Shown: positions 1 through 16,823 of the stretch, piece by piece
Numbering within the stretch: the stretch's first letter is position 1
How the letters are laid out: each line of letters begins with the position of its first letter
Position numbers and translations under genes: made by a program
Assembly (NCBI GenBank): GCA_003990745.1
Contig: RBNI01002900.1
Span: 1 to 17,209, forward strand
From: Jimgerdemannia flammicorona
Lineage: Eukaryota > Mucoromycota > Endogonomycetes > Endogonales > Endogonaceae
Direction: 5' to 3'
DNA length: 17,209 nucleotides
The notes under the pieces: generated by a model
Database searches by the model: none
What the model was told of the DNA's origin: nothing
What the model saw: only the letters and a program-made list of their open reading frames with translations

Positions 1-1968
1 GAACCCAACTCTGACCTCTATGTCCCCTACATCTGGGATGCTTTCTGCCAACAAGCTTTTCAAGAACTCAAGAACCGCCTGACCCATGCACCTGTCCTTA
101 GAAACATGGACCCAAACTTGAAGTTCACGGTCACTACAGATGCATCTAATTTTGCCATTAGTGCCGTCATTTCTCAAGATGATGGTCAAGGACACCGACC
201 TATTGCCTTTGAATCAAGAAAATTGTCCCCAGTGGAACAAAAGCTAGCTACTCATGAAAAGGAACTCCTGGCAATCATGCATGTCCTCAAGACCTGGCGA
301 CACTATCTAGAAGGAGTTGAGTTCGATGTGATCACCGATCACAGGTCCCTTCAGTATATCAACACTCAACCAACCCTTTCCCGCCAACAAGCCAAGTGGA
401 GCCAATTACTTCAGACCTTCACCCCAAACATCATCTACAAGCCCGGCAAAACTCTAGTTGTACCAGATGCACTGTCAAGAAGACCTGACCTTGCCGCAAT
501 CTTACAAGTCACTGTGGCACCGGAATTCCTCAATCAGATCAAGAAGGCTTATGAACAAGACTCTCTGGTTCTACAAAGGAACACCAAGGAATTCAAGGAA
601 AAGTACACCATCAAGGACAACCTTGTATACTATCAAGACAAAGTATATATTCCTGCCAACCCTGAACTACAGTATAAGATCCTTCATGAACATCATGACT
701 CCCCACTAGCTGGTCACCTTGGAACAGAGAAGACCATCAAGAATATCCAACGAGACTACTACTGGCCAAACATGCTCAAGGAAATCAAGGAGTATGTCCA
801 AAGCTGCAATCTCTGCCAAAGAAACAAGTCAAGCAACCAAGCACCTGCCAGTCTTCTACAACCCTTGTCAATTCCGACCAAGAAGTTTGAACAAGTCACA
901 ATGGACTTCATTGTGCAACTCCCACGAACCAAAACAGGCTATGATGCTATTGTTGTATTTGTAGACTGTCTCACCAAGATTATGATTGCCGAGCCAACCA
1001 CAACCAATGCCACTGCCCCAGAAATTGCAAGAATCTTCTTCAAGACTGTCTTCCGCCATTATGGACTTCCCTGAGTAATTATCAGCGACCGCGACCCCAA
1101 GTTCACAAGTCATTTCTGGCAAGCACTCTTCAAGACCCTTGGAACCCAAATTGCTATGTCCACTGCCTTCCATCCTCAAACCGATGGACAGACCGAGCGA
1201 ATGAACAGAACACTTGAACAAATGCTCAGAAACTATGTGTCTTATGAGCAAGATGATTGGGACCACTATCTGACCTACGCCAAGTTCGCCTACAACAATG
1301 CCAACCAATCATCAACTGGCCTTTCCCCATTCCAGCTACTTCACAGTCAAAACCCCGAGACCCCTGCAAGTCTAGTCCAATTTCAGCAATCCAGTCACAC
1401 TCGAGTCCCCACAGCCCAGAACCTTATCGACAAAATGGATTCCCTTCTCAAGATCGCCACTACAAACCTGCAAAAGGCTCAGCAACATCAAGCTAAGTAT
1501 GCAGACAAGAAGCGGCGAGATGTCACATACAATATCAGTGATATGGTTCTACTCAAAGCCGACAACATCAAGGTTCAATCTCAAGTCAACCGCCAGTCAG
1601 CCAAATTCCAGCCCAAGTACCTTGGACCCTTCGAAATCACCGAGCAAGTCTCTACATGGTCTTACTGTCTCAACTTGCCAACAACCATGCATATATACCC
1701 AGTATTCCATGTTTCACAACTCAAGGCCTGGAACCAGTCACCCCCATACCCTGGCCGAATTCTGACACCATCAGCACCAGTCATAGTTGAAGACCACATT
1801 GAGTATGAAGTCGAGAAAATCTTAGACAAGCGAGTCTGATACCGTCGCACAGAATACCTAGTCAAGTGGATGGGTTACCCTGAATATGACGCCACTTGGG
1901 AACCTGCCGCCAATCTCAAGAACTCCCAAGACCTCATCCAAGAGTTTGAGCAAAAAGGAACTCATTGA
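1..1968 (+). pseudogene. pol: Ty3/gypsy pol, C-terminal part: RNase H, integrase, chromodomain (two in-frame TGA)
   Basis: One frame is open from base 1 to a TGA at 1966-1968, broken only by TGA at 1072-1074 and 1837-1839. RNase H: TDAS with Asp at 139-141, and the VITDH motif near 328-342. Integrase zinc-binding region: His residues near 685-720 and CNLC at 805-816. Integrase core: Asp in TMDFI (904-906), Asp in SDRDPKF (1087-1089) and Glu in TERMN (1195-1197). The last two are 35 residues apart, the D,D-35-E spacing. A GPF module starts near 1624. A chromodomain (about 1790-1960) carries YLVKWMGYP and TWEP; in chromoviruses this domain steers integration to marked chromatin. Both internal TGA codons stand where the family commonly has Arg, so CGA to TGA is the simplest cause. 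The first falls inside the integrase core and the second inside the chromodomain, so a protein from this copy would be truncated. Confidence 0.95.
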
Positions 1969-2268
1969 CTGCCCATGAGGTTCTCCCCTTGGATAGTAGA
2001 CGACCTACTGTACTGATCAGGCACATTATGCATCAGGGCTCTCTAAGGGATACAGCATCAGAAACAAGAGATACAGGAGAACCCTATAAATCCTGCAACC
2101 AACGAGGTTCGAACCAGTTCTCATCCGATCAAGATAATACTTTGGCCCTCGCCTTATACAAGGATGGCCAATCCTTGCCAATGAGTCGACATATTTAATT
2201 TGAGGTTTCTTTTAGTCTTATTGTTTATTATGTGTAACTTTGAGAATTCAACAAGGACGTTGATTCTT
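1969..2268 (+). other. 3' untranslated stretch of element 1
   Basis: This is the non-coding stretch between the pol stop and the polypurine tract. The open frame at 1965-2198 has no resemblance to a retroelement domain and I treat it as chance. I see no extra gene or strong structure here. Confidence 0.7.
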
Positions 2269-2281
2269 AAGGAGAGGGAGA
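2269..2281 (+). other. Polypurine tract (plus-strand primer) of element 1
   Basis: A 13-base all-purine run (AAGGAGAGGGAGA) lies directly before the TG that opens the LTR. That is the expected site where RNase H leaves an RNA primer for plus-strand DNA synthesis. Its place fixes the 5' edge of the LTR. Confidence 0.88.
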
Positions 2282-2535
2282 TGTAACATTTTAGTGTAGT
2301 TTATTTCTTTTCTCTGTCTTTCTCGAATATTCTATAATTTTCCGGCACTTTCTGCATACTTAGAAATCCCCTTCTTGGCGCTGAGCATTAACTAGTACTT
2401 ATTTAGTTAGTCACTGAATGTCCTGGAAACTTGTAGAACTTTATTCATCATCATTTGTCATCTTTGCCGAGAACTTTCCTCTTGGCATTTTCCTTTGATT
2501 TCTCAGATCCTTCCGGATCCTTCTTTCAGATCTTG

Positions 2536-2543
2536 TATAAATA
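2536..2543 (+). promoter_or_regulatory. TATA-like box in the LTR of element 1
   Basis: TATAAATA lies about 140 bp before the LTR end, a plausible core promoter for the retrotransposon transcript. The assignment rests on motif and place only. Confidence 0.55.
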
Positions 2544-2560
2544 TCTCCTTTGTTCTCATG

Positions 2561-2566
2561 AATAAA
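2561..2566 (+). terminator. AATAAA polyadenylation signal in the LTR of element 1
   Basis: AATAAA lies 18 bases after the TATA-like box. In an LTR the same signal serves 3'-end formation of the transcript. Called from the motif and context. Confidence 0.5.
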
Positions 2567-2685
2567 GCTTCGGAATATTTTCTCTCAGAAATCCTTCGAG
2601 AACACTTGAACCCTTAGTATCTCTTCGAGCTACTTAGGATTACCAGAACTAGTCGCTTCCTCATTTAGAAACTAGAACCGTTACA

Positions 2686-2968
2686 ACCAGATTAACTATG
2701 CAGTCACCTCAGGGAGCTTATATCCAACTGACCTCAAGGTCTGGACTTGTCAGACAAGGAATAACTGTGGAAGGAGGAACCATAGACCCAGGATATAAAG
2801 GTGAGATTAAGGTCATCCTACACAACAGGTACAGAATGGCACTGAATCATTAGAGGACAGAAGATTGCCCAAGCAGTCTTCATGAAGATCAAAACTCCAC
2901 AATTGGAAGAAGTCTCTGAACTTATTGAAGGAACAAGACAAGCCAAAGGATTTGGAAGTTCAGATAGA
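2686..2968 (+). pseudogene. dUTPase domain (3' part) of element 2 pol, frameshifted
   Basis: dUTPase hydrolyses dUTP to dUMP and pyrophosphate, which keeps uracil out of newly made DNA. The reading frame begins in frame at 2686. It shows the second conserved motif (PQGAY...RSGLV, about 2707-2745), the third (GGTIDPGYKGEIKVILHN, about 2773-2826), the fourth in another frame (GQKIAQAVF, about 2855-2881) and a degraded C-terminal motif (KGFGSSD, about 2945-2965, against the usual RGxxGFGSTG). The Asp of the third motif is present. A TAG and a frameshift near 2850-2856 break the domain, and the first motif is missing because element 1 inserted here. dUTPases are known in some retroviruses and, as I recall, in a few basidiomycete Metaviridae, but they are rare in Ty3/gypsy elements. 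Confidence 0.87.
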
Positions 2969-3373
2969 AAGGAAGTACATCTCCTTCAAGTCAACTATCT
3001 CAAAAGGAACATTCCCCAGCTAGTGTACTGGCAACCAGTCAGACTGCACAAGAATCTGATCCTGGAGCCTGGAGAACAAACTACCTTCGAAATCTTTGCA
3101 CCACCTGACCTCAGAAACCTTTTCTTCGAGCCCAAGGAAGATATTCCCCACCTGGATATAGAAGGACACACATTCCCTAACAAGATGAACCCAGTATACT
3201 CCCGAGCAACCAACCAAAGTCATGAAACCATCATTTTGCTGAAAGGAACCATCATAGGACACCTGGTACCTTTTCTTAACCGAACTTATAGGAAAGTTTA
3301 TGAACGAAACCTATCAGGAAATGGCAAAAGGTCCCAGAAGAAAGAAAAGGCCCCTCTGCGACCCAGGAGATAG
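2969..3373 (+). pseudogene. Unrecognised beta-rich segment between dUTPase and RT of element 2
   Basis: This open stretch of about 135 codons continues the frame of the dUTPase C-terminus and ends at TAG 3371-3373. It contains LEPGEQTTFEIFAPPDL and later ETIILLKGTIIGHLVPF, with alternating hydrophobic residues that suggest beta strands. Many Ty3/gypsy pols have a similar segment after protease, with a pattern of the type N-x-T...I-x-L-x-K-G-T-x-I-G-x-L, so a structural spacer before RT is my inference. It is not recognisable as protease: no DTG or DSG triad is visible. The C-terminal 25 codons are basic (KRSQKKEK). A frameshift between 3305 and 3360 moves the pol frame to the one used by RT. 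Confidence 0.6.
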
Positions 3374-4785
3374 TGAAGCCTTCCACCAACATTGGAGAAG
3401 AATTGACACCTCAACAATAACAACTAGTAGAACTTCTCAACAAATATCAAGATATCTTCACTACCAATTATGACAACCTGCCATACAATCCATTATATCA
3501 CTACAGCATAAATACAGAAAATGCAACACCCATCTGGCAGAAACTCTATAGAATACCCCATTACTTGAAAATATTCAAAAAAGAGTAAATCCAAGAACTC
3601 TTAGACAATGGAGTCATTTGATCCTCTACTAGCCCCTGGGCTAGCCCTATACTAATTGTACTGAAGAAAGGAGGATGGAGACTCTGTGTGGATTACAGGA
3701 AACTCAATTCAGTCACTGAAAAGGATGCCTATCCTTTGCTTAGAATCGAAGATCTTTTAGATCAGTTACAAGATGCCAGATACTTCAGCAGTATGGACCT
3801 CTTTATGGGATTCCATGAAATCCCCATGGACCCAAAAGACATTCAAAAGACAGCCTTCCTTGCTCTAGGAAAACTGTTTGAATACCTCTGAATGCTCTTT
3901 GGACTTTGCAATATACCCCCCACCTTTCAGAGGATGATGAATTCAGTCTATATTCCCTTGATCCACCACTGCCTGATCATATATATGGATGATTTCAACA
4001 TTTATTCAGCAAATTTCGAAGAATACCTGCACCACCTAGAGGAATTCTTCAAGCTCACCCACAAGAACCACTTGAGGCTGAATGCAAAGAAATGCTACTT
4101 TGGGAAACAGAAACTTGAATTCCTTGAATTCATAGTTTTGAAGGAAGGAACCCATATAGACCTAAAGAAATCTGAGAAGATCAACAATTGGCCAGCACCC
4201 AAGACCCTGAAGGAAACACTATCATTCCTGATGCTAGTATCCTACTACAGAAGGTTTATCAAGGATTTTGCCCAAATCACTGCCCCAATCTGCATCCTTC
4301 TCAAGAAAGGAATACTATTCAAATAGACAGAATCATAAGAAAAAGCCTTCAAAGAACTCAAGAACTGTATGACTATAGCACCAATCCTTGTGTGCCCCAA
4401 TCTACAGAAGCCATTCATCTTGTATACAGATGCTTCTAAAGATGGCCTTGGAGCAGTCCTAGCCCAAGAAGGACCTGACCAATAATACCATGTGATAGCT
4501 TATGCAAGCAGAGCTACCAATCAGCAGCAGATGAACTATGGTAGCACCAAACTAGAATGTCTTGTAGTCATATGGGTGGTCACCCTGTTTAAGCATTACC
4601 TCATTAGAAAAAGGTTCACCCTAATTACAGACCATGTAGCTCTCAAATGGTTATTCAACTGCAAGGAACTCACCAGAATCCGAGCCTGCTAGATCCTTAT
4701 CCTTCAGAATTACAAAATCACCATCATCCACAAAGCAGGAAAAGCCCACAACAATGTTGATGTACTTTCCTGCCAACCCCAATGA
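3361..4785 (+). pseudogene. pol: Reverse transcriptase and RNase H of element 2 (multiple stops)
   Basis: One frame runs through this region with in-frame stops, for example TAA at 3418-3420 and TGA at 3889-3891. RT landmarks in order: SPWASPILIVLKK (about 3633-3670), LCVDYRKLN (about 3682-3708), SSMDLFMGF with the first catalytic Asp (about 3790-3816), and YMDD at 3982-3993 with the other two. RNase H landmarks: LYTDASKDGLGAVLAQ (about 4420-4470) and LITDH (about 4621-4635), then VDVLSCQP near the end. The stop before RNase H is in a stretch that normally starts with Trp and has a Gln a few residues on; here both are stops (TAG and TAA), as C-to-T change on the two strands would give. The catalytic residues survive but the chain is interrupted many times, so it cannot be made as one protein. 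Confidence 0.93.
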
Positions 4786-4802
4786 ACCAGAAGAAGGGTG
4801 TC

Positions 4803-5846
4803 CCAAGGAACTACACTCTAAAGGAAGCTCCTCAGACCATCAAGATACAAGAAGATCTCATCTATAAAGAACATCAGAAAGCCCACCAAGGACAAACAAG
4901 TACAGAAGACAAGATTTGAAAACTGTATCAACACTGGCCCCACCTCAGAACCCAAGTCTGAGACATTATCCAGAAATGTGACACTTGCCAGAAGTATTAA
5001 GGAAAGAAGAACTATCAAGCCCCTTTGCAACCAATTCCCCCACCCACTCACATCTTTCAGAGATGGGGAATAGATGTAATAGGACCCCTGCCAATAATAT
5101 CAAAACAAAATAGATACATCCTAGTATTTGTTGAACACTTGACCAAATGGTCTGAAGCATACCCCATGGAGATTACAGATGCCCTTTCCATTGTTGGACA
5201 TTTTCATGACCTTGCCCTCTGATATGGACCTCCTGAAGAACTCATCTCTAATAGAGGAACTGAATTTGTAAATAATATAATCTCAAGTTATGCACGAATT
5301 CATAGGATCCACCTGAAATAAACCACCTCTTATTATCCTCAAACTAATAGAATGACTGAAAGAATGAACCAGACCATCAAGAAAGGACTTGCCTAAGTCA
5401 ACCCTACCAATTGGGACCTCAGCTTATCTGAGATCCTATGGGAAATCCAAAATACCCCTGCTGTATCCACTAAATAAAAGTCCTTCAAAATGATGTTTGC
5501 TAAGAAGATCAGAACTGCTAACCATGAGAACCTCGGAAAGCTTCTTGAAAAAGGAGATCAGCTGCAAAATGAAGCCTGAATTCAGATTATCAAGGCCCAG
5601 GAAAGACAAAAGAAGTATTATGACCAGAAATAGAAGGATCAGAAGATCAAAATTGGTGATCAAGTCCTAGTTTGGAGAAGCATAATAGAAACAAACTTTG
5701 CTGCTAAACTGAAACTGAAATAGGAAGGACTATATCTTATACACAACATCAGAGGAACCAGCATCTATGTAAGAAGCATGGATGGATGTGTCTTGAGAAC
5801 TCCAGTCCTCATCAATTGCCTCAAGATATATCTGTACAAACCATGA
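4803..5846 (+). pseudogene. pol: Integrase of element 2, with D-to-N change in the active site
   Basis: This frame differs from that of RT/RNase H; the switch lies at 4770-4803. Landmarks are a zinc-binding region (KEHQKAHQG, then CDTCQKY at about 4977-4997), the core with Asp in WGIDVIG (5073-5075), then Asn at 5250-5252 in LISNRGTEF where the family has the second Asp, and Glu at 5358-5360 in TERMN. The Asn-Glu distance is 35 residues, so the D,D-35-E frame is kept but the second acidic residue is lost (GAT to AAT is one G-to-A change). A GPY/F-like tail follows (EGLYLI...RGTSIYVRS...DGCVLRTPVLIN...LKIYL, about 5722-5836). Stops are spread throughout, for example TGA 5220-5222. The frame ends at TGA 5844-5846, overlapping the ATG of the next ORF. 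Confidence 0.92.
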
Positions 5847-6304
5847 CTCAGAGGATAGATCAACACCTCCAGACCCTCATCCTCAGCTCTTTTCAAGCCC
5901 TGCCAATTCCCCTACCCCAGTTTTGCCAACTTGAAGGAACTCCCATACAATTGATCCAGAAGCATCAAGAGAACCTTGCCATTACCCAGAGGTTGCTTCA
6001 GATCCACCATCTACAAGCCTCCCATAACATTGGATAGCTATTGACAGAACAACCTTACATAAGGAGTCTGGCCAGAATTACTCTCAGAGAAGCAAGAACT
6101 GCCAAATAAATCTACACTCTGTATAATCGAAATATTGGAGCCCTGGTGCAGTCTCACTTCTACCTCAGCAATATTCATCAGATGAATGAGACCACCTCTC
6201 AGAGTATTCTTCAACAAGTAAGCATCCTGTTTCCTGAAGAACAAGAAGAAGATCCAGAGCTAGAATGGAGTGATCCTGGTACAGACAATAAAGATATGAA
6301 ATAG
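5843..6304 (+). pseudogene. Unrecognised extra ORF downstream of integrase in element 2
   Basis: An ATG at 5843-5845 overlaps the end of the integrase frame as ATGA. The frame runs to TAG 6302-6304, about 153 codons, with only two internal stops (TAG 6035-6037 and TAA 6107-6109). The other two frames are closed much more often here. The predicted product is rich in Gln, Leu, Ile and Pro, has no transmembrane segment or zinc motif, and ends in an acidic stretch (EEQEEDPELEWSDPGTD). I do not recognise the family. It could be a separate accessory protein made by stop-restart at ATGA, or a C-terminal extension of pol displaced by a frameshift. It is not env-like, because no signal or membrane segment is visible. 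Confidence 0.5.
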
Positions 6305-6483
6305 GCATAGAGGCAGAAGCAGCTTATGCTTATTGGGATGATGACTGAAGAACAGTCTGGAACAGACTATCCTTTAGTGAGAGCTGATGTGACAAACTGC
6401 AAAACATAGCAATCTCGAAACCCAACCAGGTGACATAAACATTAGTAAAGCATAGTAACCAGCAATGATTACTGCAGAAAATG

Positions 6484-6491
6484 TATAAATA
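6484..6491 (+). promoter_or_regulatory. TATA-like box, possibly of a decayed LTR
   Basis: TATAAATA lies 29 bases before an 18-bp tandem repeat and about 160 bases before an AATAAA. The match to the box in the LTR of element 1 is exact, but the surrounding LTR cannot be delimited. Confidence 0.3.
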
Positions 6492-6519
6492 ACCCAGATA
6501 GCTAAAGAAAGGAAAAACC

Positions 6520-6590
6520 CTGATAGTGGCTGTCACTCTGATAGTAGCTGTCACCCTGACAGTAGCTGTCACCCCACAGTGAATGTCACT
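6520..6590 (+). repeat. 18-bp tandem repeat, about four copies
   Basis: The copies are 6520-6537, 6538-6555, 6556-6573 and a shorter, diverged 6574-6590. The unit is CTGATAGTAGCTGTCACC with one or two changes in the first three copies. A further partial copy (CTAGATAGCGACC) may follow. Confidence 0.85.
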
Positions 6591-6982
6591 CTAGATAGCG
6601 ACCAAGATAGCAACCACAATGTGTAAAATACCCCAGAAACAAGAGTGAATAAACCTCAGTTCTGAAATACAAAGCAAAAGACAAGTCTGCCTACTACACT
6701 TCAAGAGATACATCTGCCAAAAGCCTCTTGATCCTAAAGGAATTGGATTGCAACACTTAGGAGAAACACCTGCTCTACAGCCACTACTAAGAGATTGTGA
6801 GCTTTGCCCCTTTCCCACTCCAGTCCACTTTCCATTACAATGAATGAGTCCATTTTGGTTGGCTTGCCAGATAAGTCTGAAGAATCCGAGTTTGCTATCT
6901 AAGTTCAAGAAGAATTTTGCAGCCTTTTGAGTAATCCACTACTTAAGGAATAAGCTGCCATTTTCAACTGCTATTCAAGAAA

Positions 6983-7106
6983 GTCTGCCATGTTTTGTCT
7001 GCCAATATGCATCATTCTATATCCTGTCTGCCATGTTTTGTCTGCCAATCTGTATTGTTCTATATCCTGTCCACTAATCTGCTGTATTCTGCTATACTAT
7101 AATCTA
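6983..7106 (+). repeat. 43-bp direct repeat, two clear copies and one degenerate
   Basis: Copies at 6983-7025 and 7026-7068 begin GTCTGCCATGTTTTGTCTGC and end TTCTATATCCT; they differ at only a few bases. A third, much diverged copy starts at 7069. Fragments of the same unit (CTGCCATTTT near 6954, CTGCCATGTTTAG near 7139, CTATTCAAG at about 6971 and 7107) show a wider degenerate array. Confidence 0.8.
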
Positions 7107-7480
7107 TACTATTCAAGTAAAACCATACTTAAGAAACCTGCCATGTTTAGTTCACCATCAGAAAAGGAACCTGATCACTATTACACCAGTAACTGGATCA
7201 CCAGAAGAACCCACACTTTTAAGGAAATTAGCTAAATTTACCATACACAAGATCACCATGTCATACAAATTAGTTTGCCACCTAAGAAGAAAACCCATTC
7301 ACATACAAAAGACCAACAACCTAAGAAAGCTACCAAATTAGGAAGTCATATACAAGAATTCTCCAGTTCGAATATTATACCACTAGATACAACATCTGAA
7401 TATTTTATTGCTTTTGACAAAGTAACTGAGGGCTCAAGCCAATCTATACTGCCACCCAACCTTGTAATTTGCCTCTATTG

Positions 7481-9095
7481 AGCCAGCACATTACAATATA
7501 GATGATATTTTTACTAAATTCTCCTTATATATTACCAAGATACAACCCCTTAGTTTAACTGAAAGAAGTATCTAGTCATTGATTGGTAATTATCTAAGTC
7601 TCTAGTCTAATCAATATTATATATATATATTAGATAGTAATATATTATTCTTCTTATTATTATTATTATTATCATAATTTCTACTCTATCTACTGAGAGT
7701 AAGAATATAGTACACCATACCTTTAATATATCTGAAAATCCTCTTAATTGTATTCTAATATAAATTATTATAGTAAGAAAAATACTATACTATCTTATTT
7801 ATAATATATAAGATATATATCTGACATTATTCTTAGTATGAGATATATAAGAGAACTAATTACTTACTAATAGAAAATATTAACATTTACCTCTAATATA
7901 GTATTGGGCTTCTTTAATTTTACTCAAGTTTTTATAGGAGTATTTACTAACCTACTATAAGTGTATAATCTTCAAGCTACTAAATCATATATTACTCTTA
8001 GAATAAATCTGAAAATTATATATAAGATTATGAAACTGAGTTAAACTGAAGTCATAGATCACAAAGCTAAGTCAACTTGAAGTTACAGAATATAAAATAT
8101 ATAAAAATAGAATTTTACCAATTAAGATCAAAAGTATATATACCAAATATATAATACAAAAAACCACAACAAATTAAAATAATAACTATAACAATCAAAC
8201 ATATATTTAGCCATAACTATTAAAGTTTATAACTTCATCTATACTGATATTTAGAATACTATTGTCAATTAGACTATAGTATTCCTACCTCTTATTTCTA
8301 TAGCTTAGTACTCCTCTACTTTATAAATACTCAATAGAATACTTTAAACACACTCAGTGAGATCCACTAAATTAGACAAATCTCAAGCTACTATCAAATT
8401 AGGTATTTTTTTAGAAAATATAATTAATTACTATTATAATATAAATATTATCAAAATATCTTAACACCAGAAGCTCAATGCATATAAATACTTAGAACTT
8501 TTTTATGAATATAGTATCTTTATTTTCTATCTCTAAGTTACTACTACTGAAATGATTATTACTTTGATCTTTGATCAAATTGATAATATAATATAAGAAC
8601 TTAACCAGAAATACATTAAGTATATCCAAACTATAGATAGACTCTTTTTGTATCTAGACAACTATATCTTACAAATATCTTAAGTAGAATATATTATAAA
8701 GGATATCTATAATATGATTTGTTTAATAATGATAAAGTAGGAAACAATAACTCCTTCAAAATAAAGTTAACTTTCAGTTAAGAATCTCTACAAATCCTGA
8801 TCACTCTGTCAATCTTACTAATGAACTCATAATAGTTTATAACTATCTATAAGATCTATTGAGATAATGACTACTAGTATAAGTATCAATATATATTCAC
8901 ATCTGACTATTTTAACTATAATGAAGAATAGTAGAATACAATCTATAACTCTAGACAACTCTTAAGATAGAACTAATAACTCTATCTTCTGAGTATGAGT
9001 AATATAATGAATAACTATCAGCTTACTACAACTCTGCAATATATAGTATTATAACCTACTAAAGGTATCCTGATAGTAAATCTGATAAAAGTGAA
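7481..9095 (+). mobile_element. Very AT-rich, CpG-free decayed element, left part
   Basis: No open gene is present, and by reading each line I find no CpG between 7371 and 9204. TpA steps are abundant, as RIP would leave. Protein-like stretches persist on +: one about 8580-8720, one in another frame about 8720-8990, and one about 8967-9113. Each is broken mainly by TAA and TAG, often where a Gln would fit. The last stretch continues in frame at 14903 once the LINE and one target duplication are skipped. I infer a transposable element ruined by C-to-T mutation. Its family is not recognisable by eye. Confidence 0.55.
7619..7672. repeat. AT and TTA microsatellites
   Basis: A run of AT dinucleotides (about 7619-7631) and about six TTA units (7654-7672) lie close together at the left of the AT-rich block. 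They are low-complexity sequence without visible function. Confidence 0.8.
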
Positions 9096-9431: not shown

Positions 9432-12400
9432 TCAAATATATATATAACCAATGTTCAGCCAGCCTAACCCAAATTGCCAGGGCCCATCCCAGGGTCAGCT
9501 ATTCATCTCCAACCCCCCCCCACTAGCCTTCAGTGGAGCTCTCCCCATCTCCCTCCTTTCTCTCCCACCAGGGCTCACAGTCTTAACCAGTCTATAATGT
9601 GGCACCAAAACTCCCCTGAAATGTCACACTCACTAAGCCAATGTTCAGATGTTTGTACCACTCCCCTCCTGTCCAACATCCAAACATTCCTCAAACTCAA
9701 ACATGCCATCTGCTACCAAGTGCCCAGACCTATAGTTCAATATCACATTCCGCCTTAGAAACTACTACCACACTACCCTGAACTTGGGGGGAAGCAACCA
9801 TATCACCTGCTTGCTCCAAGGCCAAAGACCATTCTAGTCCCACTCCTCACCAATCTCCATCCTCTGCCATGCTTCTGGCCACAGGTCCCCCCCTAAGCCC
9901 TATATATACTCTATTTCATCACTAAGCCAGAAATTCTCCACCAAAGCACCACCCAGTAGTAGCCTGTTCCATCTCAACATCTGCAGTCCCCAATCTTCCT
10001 CTCCCTCATCACTCTGCCACTGAAGTTCAATTCTCCTAGTACCATCCACCACCCTCCACCAAAAGCTCTTATACTATATCCTCTTGCTCTCATCCAGGGC
10101 CACCATTGCGAGCAGATCACCAGATGCTCTGCAGGGGGAATACTGGGCCTCACACACCCTCTGCATGAGTGGTACCCACTCCTGGCCCCTTAACTCACTC
10201 ACCCTCTTCAGCCACCATGCTCTCAAGCAATGAAGGTATTTGGTAAAGTCCACCAAGCCCAGCCCACCTTTGGCTACAGGTAGGGTCAGAACCTCCCATC
10301 CTATCTGACTTTACTGCTCAGCCCAGATCTATGATCTTGCCATCTTCAGAAGTTGCCTGATCACCTATACTGGGAAGTCCAGATGATATCCCACATACTA
10401 TAACTTTGGCAGCCAATATACATTCAGCACCATCACCTTTCCTGCCAAGGATATATGCTGACCACTCCACTATAAGAGCATATCACCCCATACTAGAAGA
10501 CACTGTTTCTACCAAGCATGGGGCAGAAGGGACCCATACACTAAAAAGTAGATCCCCAGGTAACAAACTGGATCTTCTGCTGGCACCACCATTCCAATCA
10601 TGTCACCACCAACTATTCTGCCACCTAGCATCAGAGTCTCATATTTGTTCTCATTAAGTCTAGTATCAGAGCCCCTTTCATACTATTTCACAGTCCTCCT
10701 TAATTTCTCCACATCTGCTAATAAACTCAGTCTGACCACCATATCATCTACAAAGGCCCCCACTTTTCAATTAATCCCCAGAATATCCAAACCCCCAATT
10801 CAATACCTGATCCTATCCAATAGGAGCTCTAAGGAAAGAGTATATAAGATGGGTAACAAAGAATCTCCTTGTGGCACCCCATGACCAAGTGGAAAGGTTA
10901 CACCCCTGTATCTATTGACTACTAATACTGCCTGACTGTTTTCCAAAAGACTGATTAATGACCTCCTGAACCCTGGGGGAACATCAACCCATTTCAGCAC
11001 CCCTGCTAGGCAGATCCTCCTCACTCTGTTATATACCTTCTCCTGGTCCAGAAACACTAATCTGCCATTAACCCTGGCATCCTGAGCCTCTTCAATCACT
11101 CCATGGACCTAGGCCATCTCATCTCAGATCAACCAATCACCAACAAACCCTCTTTGCTCTACTCCCAGTGCTTGCTGAACAATCCCCTGCAGTCTAGTCA
11201 CCAAGACCTTTGTCACCAGCTTACAGTCCATATCGAGGAGTATGATCAGTTGCCAGTTATTCCAATCTTCTCTTCTCCTCTTATCCTTATAGAGCAAGGA
11301 GACCAGCCCTAGACACTGGCCCCCAATCCAAGTTTCAAACTGAAGAACCTCATCACACATCACCATCAACTCCTCTAACACTATCTCTATCCTGGTCATT
11401 TTTTTTCAAAAATCCAGAGAAGCCCATCCTCTCCCAGAGCCATCCCCTTGCTTGTTGAAGCCAGAACCTTGCAAATTTCCTCCCCTCTCACTGGGTCCCC
11501 CAGAGTCTTCAGGTCCATCACTAGGTCTATACCAATCCTCCAACTGCCTTTCAATGTTTGAGACATCCTCACCCCATTCCTCCTCACTCCATAGATTCTC
11601 CCAGCAGAACCTTAGCAATTCTAGAATCGCTGGAGTCCCCACCACCATCTTTCCATCCTTATCCAAGAGACCATCCCACTGCTTTTTAGTTCTCTACACT
11701 TGTAGCAACCACAATAAAAACCTAGTAGATCTCTCTCCCTCCTCCAACTCTTGCCACCTTAGCCTTGCCACTATCTCCTTTAGTTTAACCTCTTCCTCCA
11801 ATTGTATCACTTTCTTAAGCTTCTCAACTTTCTTTTGAATCCACACAATATGCTAGTCTGCCACCTCTCAATCCTCTAGCGCCCCTGCCCATCTCTCCAG
11901 GAGTACTGCTAGCTACTGTAAAGTCCAATACACTCTCTGCTGCCACTGAATGCTCTCTCTCCAGTATCTCTAAGTACTCAATTTCTGCCTCTGCTAGCAA
12001 TCACCAATCACCAGGCCCTGATCCCACCACCTACCAATTTTTCCAATAATCTCCTCCTTCCAGTATGCCCATAAAGCACCATCCTCCAACAAAGAGGAAT
12101 TCAGTCACCAATGTCCAGGCCTATCCCCACTTCTCCCAAACCTCCCCCCCCCTAGCAGACCCTAGTGATCTGACCATGGGCACCAAACCACCTTCAGCAC
12201 AGCCCAGACATCTGCTACTCAGTACTCTGCCATCAATATCCAGTCAATCCTTGAACCCAGCCCTGCCACCCAGTGAGTATAAATTCGACAATCTTCTCAG
12301 AACTGTCTCCCTGAATCAACGAAAGAACTCAACCTCTCCATCTCTATCCAATTATCCAACCTGCCACTTCTGCTCCTCATTCCTCTCTCATCATCAGTCC

Positions 12401-12826
12401 TGTCCACCACATTGTCCCTTACTATGTTAAAATCCCCCCCCAGGCAGTCAATCTCTACCTCACTCATGATACTAGCCTCTCTCAAATTTCTGATCCAATC
12501 TACCTGTTCTCCCCTCTCTGCTGGGCAATAACATGATCCAACTGACAAAGAGCTCTATCCAGGCCTCTTCCACACTCACCACACCAACTGACTCCCCCAA
12601 TGTCCAATATCACCAATGTCCCCCATCCCCTTTTGAACTAGGATACCCACCTGCCCAGTCCACACAGCCACCCCCCCCCCATTCCCTAGTCCAATCCTGT
12701 AAGTCCACATCTACCTCATAATGCATATTCTGCAGTAAGAAGTGATCTGCATCCAATCCCTTGAGCTAACCAAATATGTACTTTCACTGAGCTGCCCCCC
12801 TCAATCTATTCACATTCAAAGAGAAT
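9432..12826 (-). pseudogene. LINE ORF2: endonuclease and reverse transcriptase (stops, frameshifts)
   Basis: Endonuclease: SLNVNRLRGA near 12826-12797, an LLQN remnant of the LLQE motif, and GGDFN at 12440-12426 followed by VDRTDDERG. RT: a run-in GEDGL near 11410; KDKRRREDWNNWQLIILLD (about 11285-11229); LDQEKVYNR with the first catalytic Asp at 11048-11046; GVPQGD at 10880-10863; and FVDD at 10754-10743. Downstream, LPVAKGGLGLVDF (about 10285-10245) is a typical post-RT landmark of fungal LINEs, followed by Trp-rich sequence to TGA 9434-9432. Most of it lies in one frame. A shift to another frame at about 11520-11400 is undone by a second one, so GEDGL and its neighbours read in the alternate frame. 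In YNR the family has YDR. The endonuclease part switches frame around 12550-12600. The start is approximate. Confidence 0.92.
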
Positions 12827-12877
12827 ATTCTAGTTGTACTATTCATATTGAATAATGTTTGAATTTGAGAACCCAGC

Positions 12878-14734
12878 CTAGTATTTCATACTCATCTCAT
12901 CTCCAGCCAGATCCAAGTACCACTCCACTTCTAGGTCATCTTCCACTACAGTCTGAGCATCTAATGCCTTCAAGATTTCTTGATATTCCACCCCATCCAC
13001 TACTTCCATCTCTGCCTGATAATCTGTGCAGACCACTTTCCACTTCTCCAGCTCTTTCCTTGATCCCGATAAGTATACTGCCCATTTATTTGCAATCATC
13101 TGAAGTTTTTCCTCTCTCTGATCATCTATTTGATATTCAACCAATTCCAAGAGAACTGCTAGAATCTCATTCCTAACCTTCCTCAGTATCTTCTCACCAT
13201 GAAGAATTTCCTCCCAATGTCTCTCTTTTATAACTTGGAAGTTCTCTCCCCCCAGCTCCTCTACTGCCAACCCTTCCAGAGTCTTCCACAGCCACTTTTC
13301 CTCATCCACCATCTCTGTCATACCCTGGGTGACCTGTCCAACCCCCACCTCTGGGTCCACCAAAGCACTCCTCCTCACTGACTTATTCTACTCCTCTTCT
13401 GGTATATCCAGTAGTTCCTCCTCATCCTCTGCCCCACCTGGAACACCATACTGAGGGTGTACTTCCTCACCTATTTCCATGTCCACCTCTATACCTCCCT
13501 GTCTCTTCTCCCTCAATCCACCCTAGGCCCCACCTTGGGCTGTCCTGTATTCCCCTGCCCAGGCACTCTCTTGCAGTCCTGCTCCTCCTTCCCCTGTACT
13601 GCCAGTAGCCCCACCACTATCCAACTTCTCCAGTAGCTCCCTCTGGATTCTCCTCTCTTGTATCTTCTCCCAGGTCACCCTTTCCACCCTGATCCTCTTC
13701 TCATCTACCATTTCCACCACTGTCTTGGTCTCATACTCCTTCCAAGCCAACCTTCTCCTCTTGACTACTCTTGCCAGATCCTCCAGAGTCTCCAGTAAAT
13801 CCTCCTCCTCTTTCTGAGTCCCTTTTACCCTCACTACCTTGTACTCTACCTGTCACCACTTCAGAGTCACTGGCCAGTTCCTTGTCTTCCCCATATTCTC
13901 CTTTTCAGCTAGCCTCACTCAGATGTCAACATCATCAGTCTGGAGTTCTATACCCTCCCAAACTTTAAACCCAATGTCTACTATCTCTCTATAATCCTTG
14001 ACCATCTCTACAATTAACTCCCTGGCCCTCTCCCTCAATACCATTGGAAGATCCAACACCATCAACTGTACCACTTGGAGGTCCCAGCACATACACCTGA
14101 CCATAGGGACCACCACTCTGCCCACTATCACCCTCTTCTCCATGGCTGTCAACAATACTGCCTCTTCCTCAAACCCAACCTTGATCCCTTCTTTCTCCTT
14201 CAAGAACTTCACCAAAGCTGCCCCCTTCACCTCCTGAGCCACTAGCCCCAAGATCATCCTTGCTGTCACTGCCAAGCCTCTGAAACATAATGTGACAGTG
14301 AATTTCAACCTTGATTTTTTGAGTAATCATATCAACACCATACCTGTCACACCATCTGCCAGGTCCCTGGGCCTTGTGCCCACTCTCTATCCTGAACTGC
14401 CAACTACCATCACATCTGGATTTTTTTCCAGATCTCCAGTCACAGCTCTATTAGCAGTCATATCTCTAGCCCCTACTCCCCCCCCTCCTCTACTATCTGA
14501 TCCTCCCAAGGGGGCCTCTCTCTGTCTCTCAATAGAAGCCATTGATGCCTTCCCCAGGCCCAGCCAACTATCCAGACCAGAAGCCATTCTCCCTATCTTT
14601 ACTTTGTCTGCAAAGGTCATCCTCTCACCTCCACATTGCCTCAATCCACCTCTTTCTCCTCCAGCAGTACCATGGCCTGCCAAAGAAGGCCCTGATATTC
14701 CCAAACCATCCCCCCTCCTCCTCCCAACATGCTG
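12878..14734 (-). pseudogene. LINE ORF1 (Gag-like nucleic-acid-binding protein), six internal stops
   Basis: A single frame spans about 619 codons with only six stops: TAG 14389-14387, TGA 14329-14327, TGA 13921-13919, TGA 13855-13853, TAG 13525-13523 and TAG 13390-13388. It ends at TAG 12880-12878. No frameshift is needed, and all stops could come from C-to-T change (CGA or TGG to TGA, CAG or TGG to TAG). The N-terminal part holds TFADKVK, as in Gag-like ORF1 proteins of fungal LINEs. The middle and C-terminal parts are rich in Glu, Lys, Arg and Leu and look coiled-coil forming. I see no CCHC zinc knuckle, which ORF1 of Tad1-type elements often has. By position it is the RNA-binding ORF1; by sequence it is only weakly recognisable. 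The true start is uncertain, as a stop lies at 14737-14735. Confidence 0.8.
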
Positions 14735-16603: not shown

Positions 16604-16823
16604 AATGTCCAGTGTCCAAAGTACCGTACCACCCTCCTAGCACTATTTACTTCATAACAATACCAATGTCCAGTGTCCCACGCCACCTTCCCATTCTATT
16701 TACATCATAACAATACCAATGTCCGGCGTCCCACACCACCCTCCCATTCTATTTACATCATAACAATAACAGTGTCACGTATCACATCCAGCGCCACCTT
16801 TCCATTTCAATTTACATAATCCC
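16604..16823 (+). repeat. Minisatellite, 53-bp unit, about four copies
   Basis: The units are 16604-16664 (61 bp, with an 8-bp excess), 16665-16717, 16718-16770 and 16771-16823 (53 bp each). The shared core is AATGTCCAGTGTCCCAC near the start and CTATTTACATCATAACAATA near the end. Units 2 and 3 are the closest pair and unit 4 is the most diverged. It is rich in pyrimidines on +, and no reading frame crosses it convincingly. Confidence 0.9.

What the first reader, a model, noticed from the sequence alone, without database searches (positions are those of the whole stretch)
2686..2968. dUTPase domain inside a fungal Ty3/gypsy pol
The second, third and fourth dUTPase motifs are readable, and the C-terminal GFGS motif is present in degraded form. 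This dUTPase is joined to a Ty3/gypsy pol, upstream of RT and separated from it by about 135 codons. Retroelement dUTPases are known from some retroviruses and, as I recall, from a few basidiomycete Metaviridae; the position and partners may differ here. It suggests the element copied itself in cells or stages with high dUTP.
Basis: partly seen in the sequence, partly recalled or inferred. Interest (0 to 1): 0.75.

Follow-up and report, generated by a model that had tools for sequence, protein, structure and literature searches.

The report
Retrotransposon carrying its own dUTPase
A jumping gene that carries its own enzyme for clearing a mutagenic DNA building block lies here cut in two by another jumping gene; the arrangement is a known type, but this genome holds more than a thousand recognisable sites of three such families.

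Summary
Confirmed: window 2686-2968 encodes a dUTPase (PF00692; pieces E 2.4e-8 and 2.4e-5) that belongs to a Ty3/gypsy element (family B). Motif 1 is missing because a second element (A) inserted between motifs 1 and 2; its 404-bp 3' LTR, 2282-2685, abuts the dUTPase. The dUTPase N-terminus is present in 29 of 29 other B loci held, and RT follows in 26 of 29 at nearly constant spacing. B reads Gag-PR-Cys region-dUTPase-X in one frame, then a -1 frame to RT-RH-IN, then a small ORF4 whose ATG overlaps the pol stop. The dUTPase frame is under purifying selection (dN/dS about 0.2; wrong frames 0.7-1.6), and five residues I take as active-site residues are in 30 of 30 rows. Two further families (A itself and '1') carry different dUTPases, placed before the protease region; 34-mer counts give 665, 263 and 833 sites. 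A dUTPase between PR and RT is already reported for a basidiomycete element, PosPlaTy3-5 (PMC2864245, passages), so this is a new member of a known kind. The idea of high-dUTP cells is untested. Host not identified.

The parts
1..2281 (+). Element A: 3' part of a chromodomain Ty3/gypsy element (RNase H, integrase, SH3_Tf2-1, chromodomain), inserted into element B
   Evidence: Pfam: RT_RNaseH 1e-35, Integrase_H2C2 5e-24, SH3_Tf2-1 2e-17; Chromo 3.8e-15 on window:1840-1965
2282..2685 (+). 3' LTR of element A, 404 bp, TGTAAC...GTTACA
   Evidence: blastn: matches both LTRs of related elements in L015, L021 and L023 at about 93-95%, L024 at 96.8%, L018 at 87-90%
2686..2690 (+). Candidate 5-bp target site duplication; the other copy would lie off the contig, so it is untested
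   Evidence: LTR ends by 2683-2686 in most loci, B homology starts at 2685 or 2690 in 28 of 29 loci
2686..2968 (+). Element B: dUTPase domain, motifs 2-5, one frame break near 2830-2850; motif 1 cut off by element A
   Evidence: PF00692 pieces 2.4e-8 and 2.4e-5; full domain in B copy L045, 6.3e-26
2969..3373 (+). Element B: conserved region X (about 130 aa, no Pfam family), to the stop of the Gag-PR-dUTPase frame
   Evidence: No Pfam family at E up to 10; 75-79% identical to P0001-P0003; ungapped alignment to window 2846-3370 over 523-525 of 525 bases in 29 of 29 loci
3304..3373 (+). Overlap of the Gag-PR-dUTPase-X frame with the pol frame (-1)
   Evidence: Overlap sequence alike in 29 of 29 loci and the window; P0001-P0003 end at the equivalent place
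3622..4323 (+). Element B: reverse transcriptase, two pieces separated by a stop
   Evidence: RVT_1 1e-9 and 2.6e-12
4486..4689 (+). Element B: RNase H
   Evidence: RT_RNaseH 3e-18
4802..5846 (+). Element B: integrase, decayed; no chromodomain in the one better copy tested
   Evidence: rve 0.0092 on window:5001-5219 (below cut-off); blastn 75.6% to L056 over 4802-6856; L056:2-1045 Integrase_H2C2 9.5e-10, rve 2.4e-9
5843..6172 (+). Element B: ORF4, ATG overlapping the pol stop (ATGA), decayed here
   Evidence: Same overlap and similar protein in L056 from 1045
7398..7510 (+). Element B: remnant of the 3' LTR end
   Evidence: blastn to the LTR ends in L055 (82.7%) and L056 (80.9%)

Best explanation
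The segment is the dUTPase domain of an abundant Ty3/gypsy LTR retrotransposon family (B). Shown: B copies read Gag (zinc knuckle)-retropepsin-cysteine-rich region-dUTPase-X in one frame, then RT-RNase H-integrase in the -1 frame, then a short ORF4. The window copy is a dead relic, split by a chromodomain element (A), whose own relatives carry a different dUTPase. Inferred: the dUTPase is made as part of the Gag-PR precursor, so it would be more abundant than the RT made by frame change and would be packed into the particle. Freed by PR, it would convert dUTP to dUMP around reverse transcription, keeping uracil out of the cDNA and so protecting it from uracil excision.
For: PF00692 in the window and full length in L045, 6.3e-26. 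Linkage: dUTPase N-terminus in 29 of 29 B loci; RT pieces in 26 of 29, 24 of these at one exact offset for the first piece. PR: L055:2423-2971, PF13975 2.4e-12. Frame: in L057 Gag and the protease motif share a frame; in L058 Gag and the stretches before and after the protease share one (the motif itself was not read there); in L055 an indel splits Gag from PR. Selection: dN/dS 0.19 for dUTPase, 0.22 for the part outside the search query, against 0.7-1.6 in wrong frames, also after dropping CpG codons (27 of 30 rows; window, L036 and L043 dropped). Asp and Tyr of motif 3, Ser of motif 2, Gln of motif 4 and Phe of motif 5 in 30 of 30 rows (their catalytic roles are recalled). Nesting: LTR boundary.
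Against: No activity, expression or particle data. No canonical slippery heptamer seen by eye in the -1 overlap, so how pol is expressed is unknown. The 29 loci were the best matches of a protein search, not a random sample, and X and the dUTPase C-terminus were part of that query. Motif-1 Asp is Asn in 4 of 29 copies. Gag-PR order was read in three copies only, with a complete protease motif in two.
Confidence: 0.8

Rival explanations
1. The dUTPase domain has no enzymatic job; it is kept as a structural or binding module (trimer contact in the particle, or partner binding), as proposed for some retroviral dUTPase-like proteins.
For: PMC4261571 (title and start of abstract in a listing) reports a bovine lentivirus dUTPase-related gene needed for replication despite lack of dUTPase activity. 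B's motif 5 ends SSD where the usual form has STG (recalled).
Against: Five residues I take as active-site residues are in 30 of 30 rows, and the domain aligns nearly end to end with solved dUTPases (2okd, 2.6e-22).
Confidence: 0.15
2. The segment is a piece of a cellular dUTPase gene or unlinked genomic DNA that happens to lie beside a gypsy relic.
For: In the window alone the domain is truncated, frame-broken and starts right at an LTR.
Against: dUTPase, X and RT sit together in 26 of 29 other loci; 665 sites match a 34-mer in the overlap next to it.
Confidence: 0.02
3. Region X, directly after the dUTPase, is a second, catalytically dead dUTPase fold, so that the element carries a tandem.
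For: hhalign aligns X 25-109 co-linearly with the dUTPase profile; 2 of 400 column shuffles score as high, and eight other regions of the element and reversed X score lower. With two reduced profiles 1 and 0 of 200 shuffles reach the real score.
Against: Probability only 6.5%. With the four reduced profiles the match covers just 21-39 columns, and with two of these four 35 and 95 of 200 shuffles score as high. The X model is poor (pLDDT 43.6); of 92 Foldseek matches, none at E <= 0.001, the 50 listed include no dUTPase by description.
Confidence: 0.12

Closest known systems
PosPlaTy3-5 and other dUTPase-bearing PosPlaTy3 elements, Postia placenta (PMC2864245, passages read)
   Same: Ty3/gypsy LTR element with dUTPase between PR and RT; other families of the same genome carry it elsewhere; independent acquisitions suggested
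   Different: The passages read do not mention a Cys-rich region, X, a -1 frame between dUTPase and RT, or ORF4 overlapping the pol stop.
dUTPase-containing Metaviridae of Phanerochaete chrysosporium, and Tmt1 of Tuber melanosporum (named in PMC2864245; the papers themselves not seen)
   Same: Fungal LTR retrotransposons with dUTPase
   Different: Not compared at sequence level
dUTPase domains enriched with other retroelement domains in Entomophthora muscae (PMC11105155, one passage read)
   Same: A fungal genome with many transposon-linked PF00692 domains
   Different: The passage gives no element anatomy or position of the domain
Juno, Vesta and TelKA elements of bdelloid rotifers (PMC5408684, passages read)
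   Same: dUTPase between PR and RT; no chromodomain; extra ORF after pol in some
   Different: Different host group; their ORF3 types include env-like, esterase and exonuclease proteins; B's ORF4 has no Pfam match over a cut-off
Betaretroviruses (dUTPase-PR in a separate frame) and non-primate lentiviruses (dUTPase after RNase H); layouts recalled
   Same: Reverse-transcribing element with a trimeric-type dUTPase sequence
   Different: In family B the dUTPase follows PR; families A and 1 have it before the protease region, the betaretrovirus order

Membership tests
Trimeric-type dUTPase (PF00692) | Profile match over the curated cut-off | tested here: met
   Window pieces 34.3 and 24.5 bits, cut-off 22; L045 91.1 bits, profile 3-128 of 129
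Trimeric-type dUTPase (PF00692) | All five motifs with active-site residues | tested here: met
   In B copies: motif 1 GYDL with D in 25 of 29 and N in 4; motif 3 D and Y, motif 4 Q, motif 5 F in 30 of 30 rows. Not met by the window copy itself, which lacks motif 1
Trimeric-type dUTPase (PF00692) | dUTP hydrolysis, trimer | not testable with these tools
   Needs protein
Ty3/gypsy LTR retrotransposon (Metaviridae) | Domain order PR-RT-RH-IN between LTRs | tested here: met
   Copy on C1549: LTR pair 94.4% over 414 bp, zf-CCHC 7.4e-5, PR 2.4e-12, IN 9.5e-10 and 2.4e-9, RT and RH. LTR starts were not mapped
Chromovirus (chromodomain clade) | Chromodomain at the integrase C-terminus | tested here: not met
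   No Chromo match in L056:2-1045, whereas element A and family 1 have it. One B copy tested
PosPlaTy3-5-like subgroup | dUTPase between PR and RT | tested here: met
   PR upstream in L055 and L057; RT downstream in 26 of 29 loci
PosPlaTy3-5-like subgroup | Common descent with PosPlaTy3-5 in an RT tree | not tested

The most novel reading that the evidence does not exclude
At least three gypsy families in one genome took up dUTPases independently and at two different positions, and these families rose to at least 1,761 sites together. That would point to strong, repeated selection on reverse transcription in this host, such as chronically high dUTP or uracil-directed destruction of cDNA.
Probability: 0.25. 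Interest if true: 0.6.

Novelty: new member of a known kind. Interest (0 to 1): 0.36.

Why it matters
dUTPase in fungal retrotransposons has been in print since 2008, yet its role and origin were called unclear (PMC2864245, passages). A genome with three dUTPase families, each in hundreds of recognisable sites, gives enough copies to ask whether the domain helps amplification: compare families with and without it, and test the enzymes. The nested pair in the window also shows how one relic can mislead: the missing motif is an insertion, not divergence.

Tried and rejected
Gag/PR frameshift: the copy in L055 suggested a betaretrovirus-like third frame; L057 and L058 do not show it, so I dropped it. 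Slippery site in the pro/pol overlap: I read the overlap printed by eye and found no canonical X XXY YYZ heptamer. Second dUTPase fold in X: weak and not robust; listed as a rival. Structure prediction: the P0001 model had mean pLDDT 28.9 (4 rows), the X model 43.6 (5 rows); Foldseek gave nothing at E <= 0.001; all uninformative. CpA-type RIP: rejected, since C/T pair differences are 0.60 at CpG against 0.13 at CpA, 0.11 at CpC and 0.09 at CpT (29 copies). More X relatives: a profile search of the protein database gave 3 proteins, two of them known already. Phage records: 401 hold a match, all under 60% identity, as expected of any dUTPase. Searches used thresholds that the profiles could not reach and are uninformative. 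Host: hydrophobin and STE3 gave 0 candidates, but no control rang and genes may be split by introns, so this does not show absence; the EF-Tu family gave 9 matches among 12 candidates, some consistent with split exons; chitin synthase did not complete. dUTPase tree: 17 sequences, short alignment, three PDB references; it separates the three families but cannot date or source the acquisitions.

Full report
OBSERVATION. Window 2686-2968 does encode a dUTPase. The frame piece 2653-2850 matches PF00692 at 2.4e-8 (profile 29-84) and the piece 2846-3370 at 2.4e-5 (profile 92-128), both over the cut-off. Downstream lie RT (1e-9 and 2.6e-12), RNase H (3e-18) and a weak integrase core (0.0092, below its cut-off).

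WHY MOTIF 1 IS MISSING. The DNA before 2686 belongs to another element, A, whose RNase H, integrase and chromodomain lie in window 1-2281. Its 404-bp LTR, 2282-2685, matches LTRs of other copies mostly at 93-97%, L002 and L018 at 87-90%. Homology of the 29 B loci to the window starts at 2685 or 2690 in 28 and at 2698 in L028, just where A's LTR ends. So A landed inside B's dUTPase, between motifs 1 and 2. Its other end is off the contig, so the 5-bp duplication is untested.

FAMILY B IN THE GENOME. A protein search with the dUTPase end and X scored 150 of 1725 first-look candidates; all 150 matched, at 84-92% identity apart from the window itself. I held the 29 best other loci: the dUTPase N-terminus is in 29 of 29, and RT pieces in 26 of 29, 24 of them at one exact offset for the first RT piece; L038, L040 and L044 show no RT in the fetched stretch, which in L044 ends soon after the dUTPase frame at the contig end. 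The alignment to window 2846-3370 is ungapped over 523-525 of 525 bases in 29 of 29. A 34-mer in the overlap after X, with up to 3 mismatches, has 665 sites; the reversed control has 0. That 34-mer lies outside the dUTPase itself.

ANATOMY. L055 (C1549) has a Gag ORF with a zinc knuckle (7.4e-5) and a retropepsin (PF13975 2.4e-12). There a 1-nt difference puts Gag and PR in different frames; in L057 (C377) Gag and the protease motif are in one frame, and in L058 (C612) Gag and the stretches before and after the protease are in one frame. By contig coordinates of the ORFs, this frame is also that of the dUTPase in all three copies. It runs through a Cys-rich region with no Pfam family (L037, L052), the dUTPase, and X, and stops at window 3371-3373. 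The pol frame (-1) opens at 3304. P0001-P0003, database proteins 71-80% identical to L045, end at the same place. In C1549 the integrase frame ends in a TGA that overlaps the ATG of ORF4; the window shows the same ATGA at 5843-5846. B's integrase has no chromodomain hit (one copy). LTRs of the C1549 copy are 94.4% identical over the 414 bp compared.

IS THE DOMAIN KEPT? Over 27 copies (of 30 rows; window, L036 and L043 dropped) dN/dS is 0.19 for the dUTPase, 0.12 for X and 0.32 for an RT part; wrong frames of dUTPase and X give 0.7-1.7. For the dUTPase part outside the search query it is 0.22 (0.23 without CpG codons), wrong frames 0.7-1.6. These loci were the best matches, so the levels are biased low for X and the dUTPase end. 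The motif-3 Asp and Tyr, motif-2 Ser, motif-4 Gln and motif-5 Phe are in 30 of 30 rows; motif-1 Asp is in 25 of 29, Asn in 4. Damage is mainly of CpG type: C/T pair differences 0.60 at CpG against 0.09-0.13 in other contexts (29 copies), as expected from methylated CpG decay (inference).

OTHER dUTPase FAMILIES. The first genome search scored 150 of 5391 first-look candidates for PF00692, all 150 over the cut-off. Family A (the invader) and family 1 carry dUTPase after a zinc knuckle and before the protease region (L024: zf-CCHC 0.032, dUTPase 2.9e-18 and 5.2e-11, PF13975 1.5e-7; L009 and L016: zf-CCHC 8e-4 and 4.2e-4, dUTPase 3.2e-34 and 2.7e-33, RVP_2 only 0.069 and 0.032). The three zinc-knuckle scores and the RVP_2 scores are below their cut-offs. 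Sites by a 34-mer within the dUTPase: 263 for A and 833 for family 1, controls 0. All these counts are sites, not intact elements. The three dUTPases share 32-43% identity; in a small tree each forms its own group, and B joins P0005, a protein I labelled phage-like without testing it, with support 87. That fits separate captures but does not prove them. By sequence, B's best solved match is 2okd (2.6e-22; a poxvirus enzyme by recall) and family 1's is 3lqw (1.2e-25).

MECHANISM. Shown: the domain, its linkage, its frame, its conservation. Inferred: it is made with Gag-PR, enters the particle, and lowers dUTP at the site of cDNA synthesis. The review PMC4531489 (passages) describes dUTP misincorporation as the likely reason for retroviral dUTPases and their importance in non-dividing cells for non-primate lentiviruses. 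Whether it holds here is open.

KNOWN OR NEW. PMC2864245 (passages) reports dUTPase at the N-terminus of Pol (PosPlaTy3-3), the C-terminus (PosPlaTy3-4) or between PR and RT (PosPlaTy3-5), earlier reports in Phanerochaete and Tuber, likely independent acquisition, and an unclear role. PMC5408684 and PMC6431247 (passages) report the PR-RT position in rotifers and planarians; PMC11105155 (passage) reports enrichment of PF00692 with retroelement domains in Entomophthora muscae, so a high load in a fungus is not without precedent. I saw no report of the X region, the -1 boundary behind the dUTPase or the ATGA-coupled ORF4 in the listings or the passages read; none of those searches named these features, and they cover open-access papers only. 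Hence: new member of a known kind, with a large copy load.

Noticed in passing
window 10074-14326, minus strand: Decayed non-LTR-type reverse transcriptase sequence (type recalled from its look): window:10800-11108 minus gives RVT_1 at 0.0028, below the cut-off; neighbouring minus-strand frames (e.g. 11406-11693, 12878-13387) have no Pfam match.
   Followed up: partly
L010:1429-2196 on the dUTPase strand; similar frames in L009, L011, L016: Family-1 elements carry a further ORF before Gag (256 aa in L010) of unknown function.
   Followed up: no
L037:1-795, L052:2-796: Cys-rich region between PR and dUTPase of family B with six cysteines spaced roughly like a fungal zinc cluster (resemblance recalled) plus two CxH...CxxCH-like motifs; no Pfam match.
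   Followed up: partly
window 5843-6172; L056 from 1045: ORF4 of family B; ATG overlaps the pol TGA in both copies. DUF7339 match only 0.0096, below the cut-off.
   Followed up: partly
P0007 (database protein): dUTPase followed by a DSG-type protease-like stretch (read by eye), perhaps another dUTPase-PR retroelement.
   Followed up: no
window 7001-9000 and 16628-16817: AT-rich stretch (GC 0.29 and 0.23) around and after the end of element B, and a 53-bp tandem array of about three copies.
   Followed up: no
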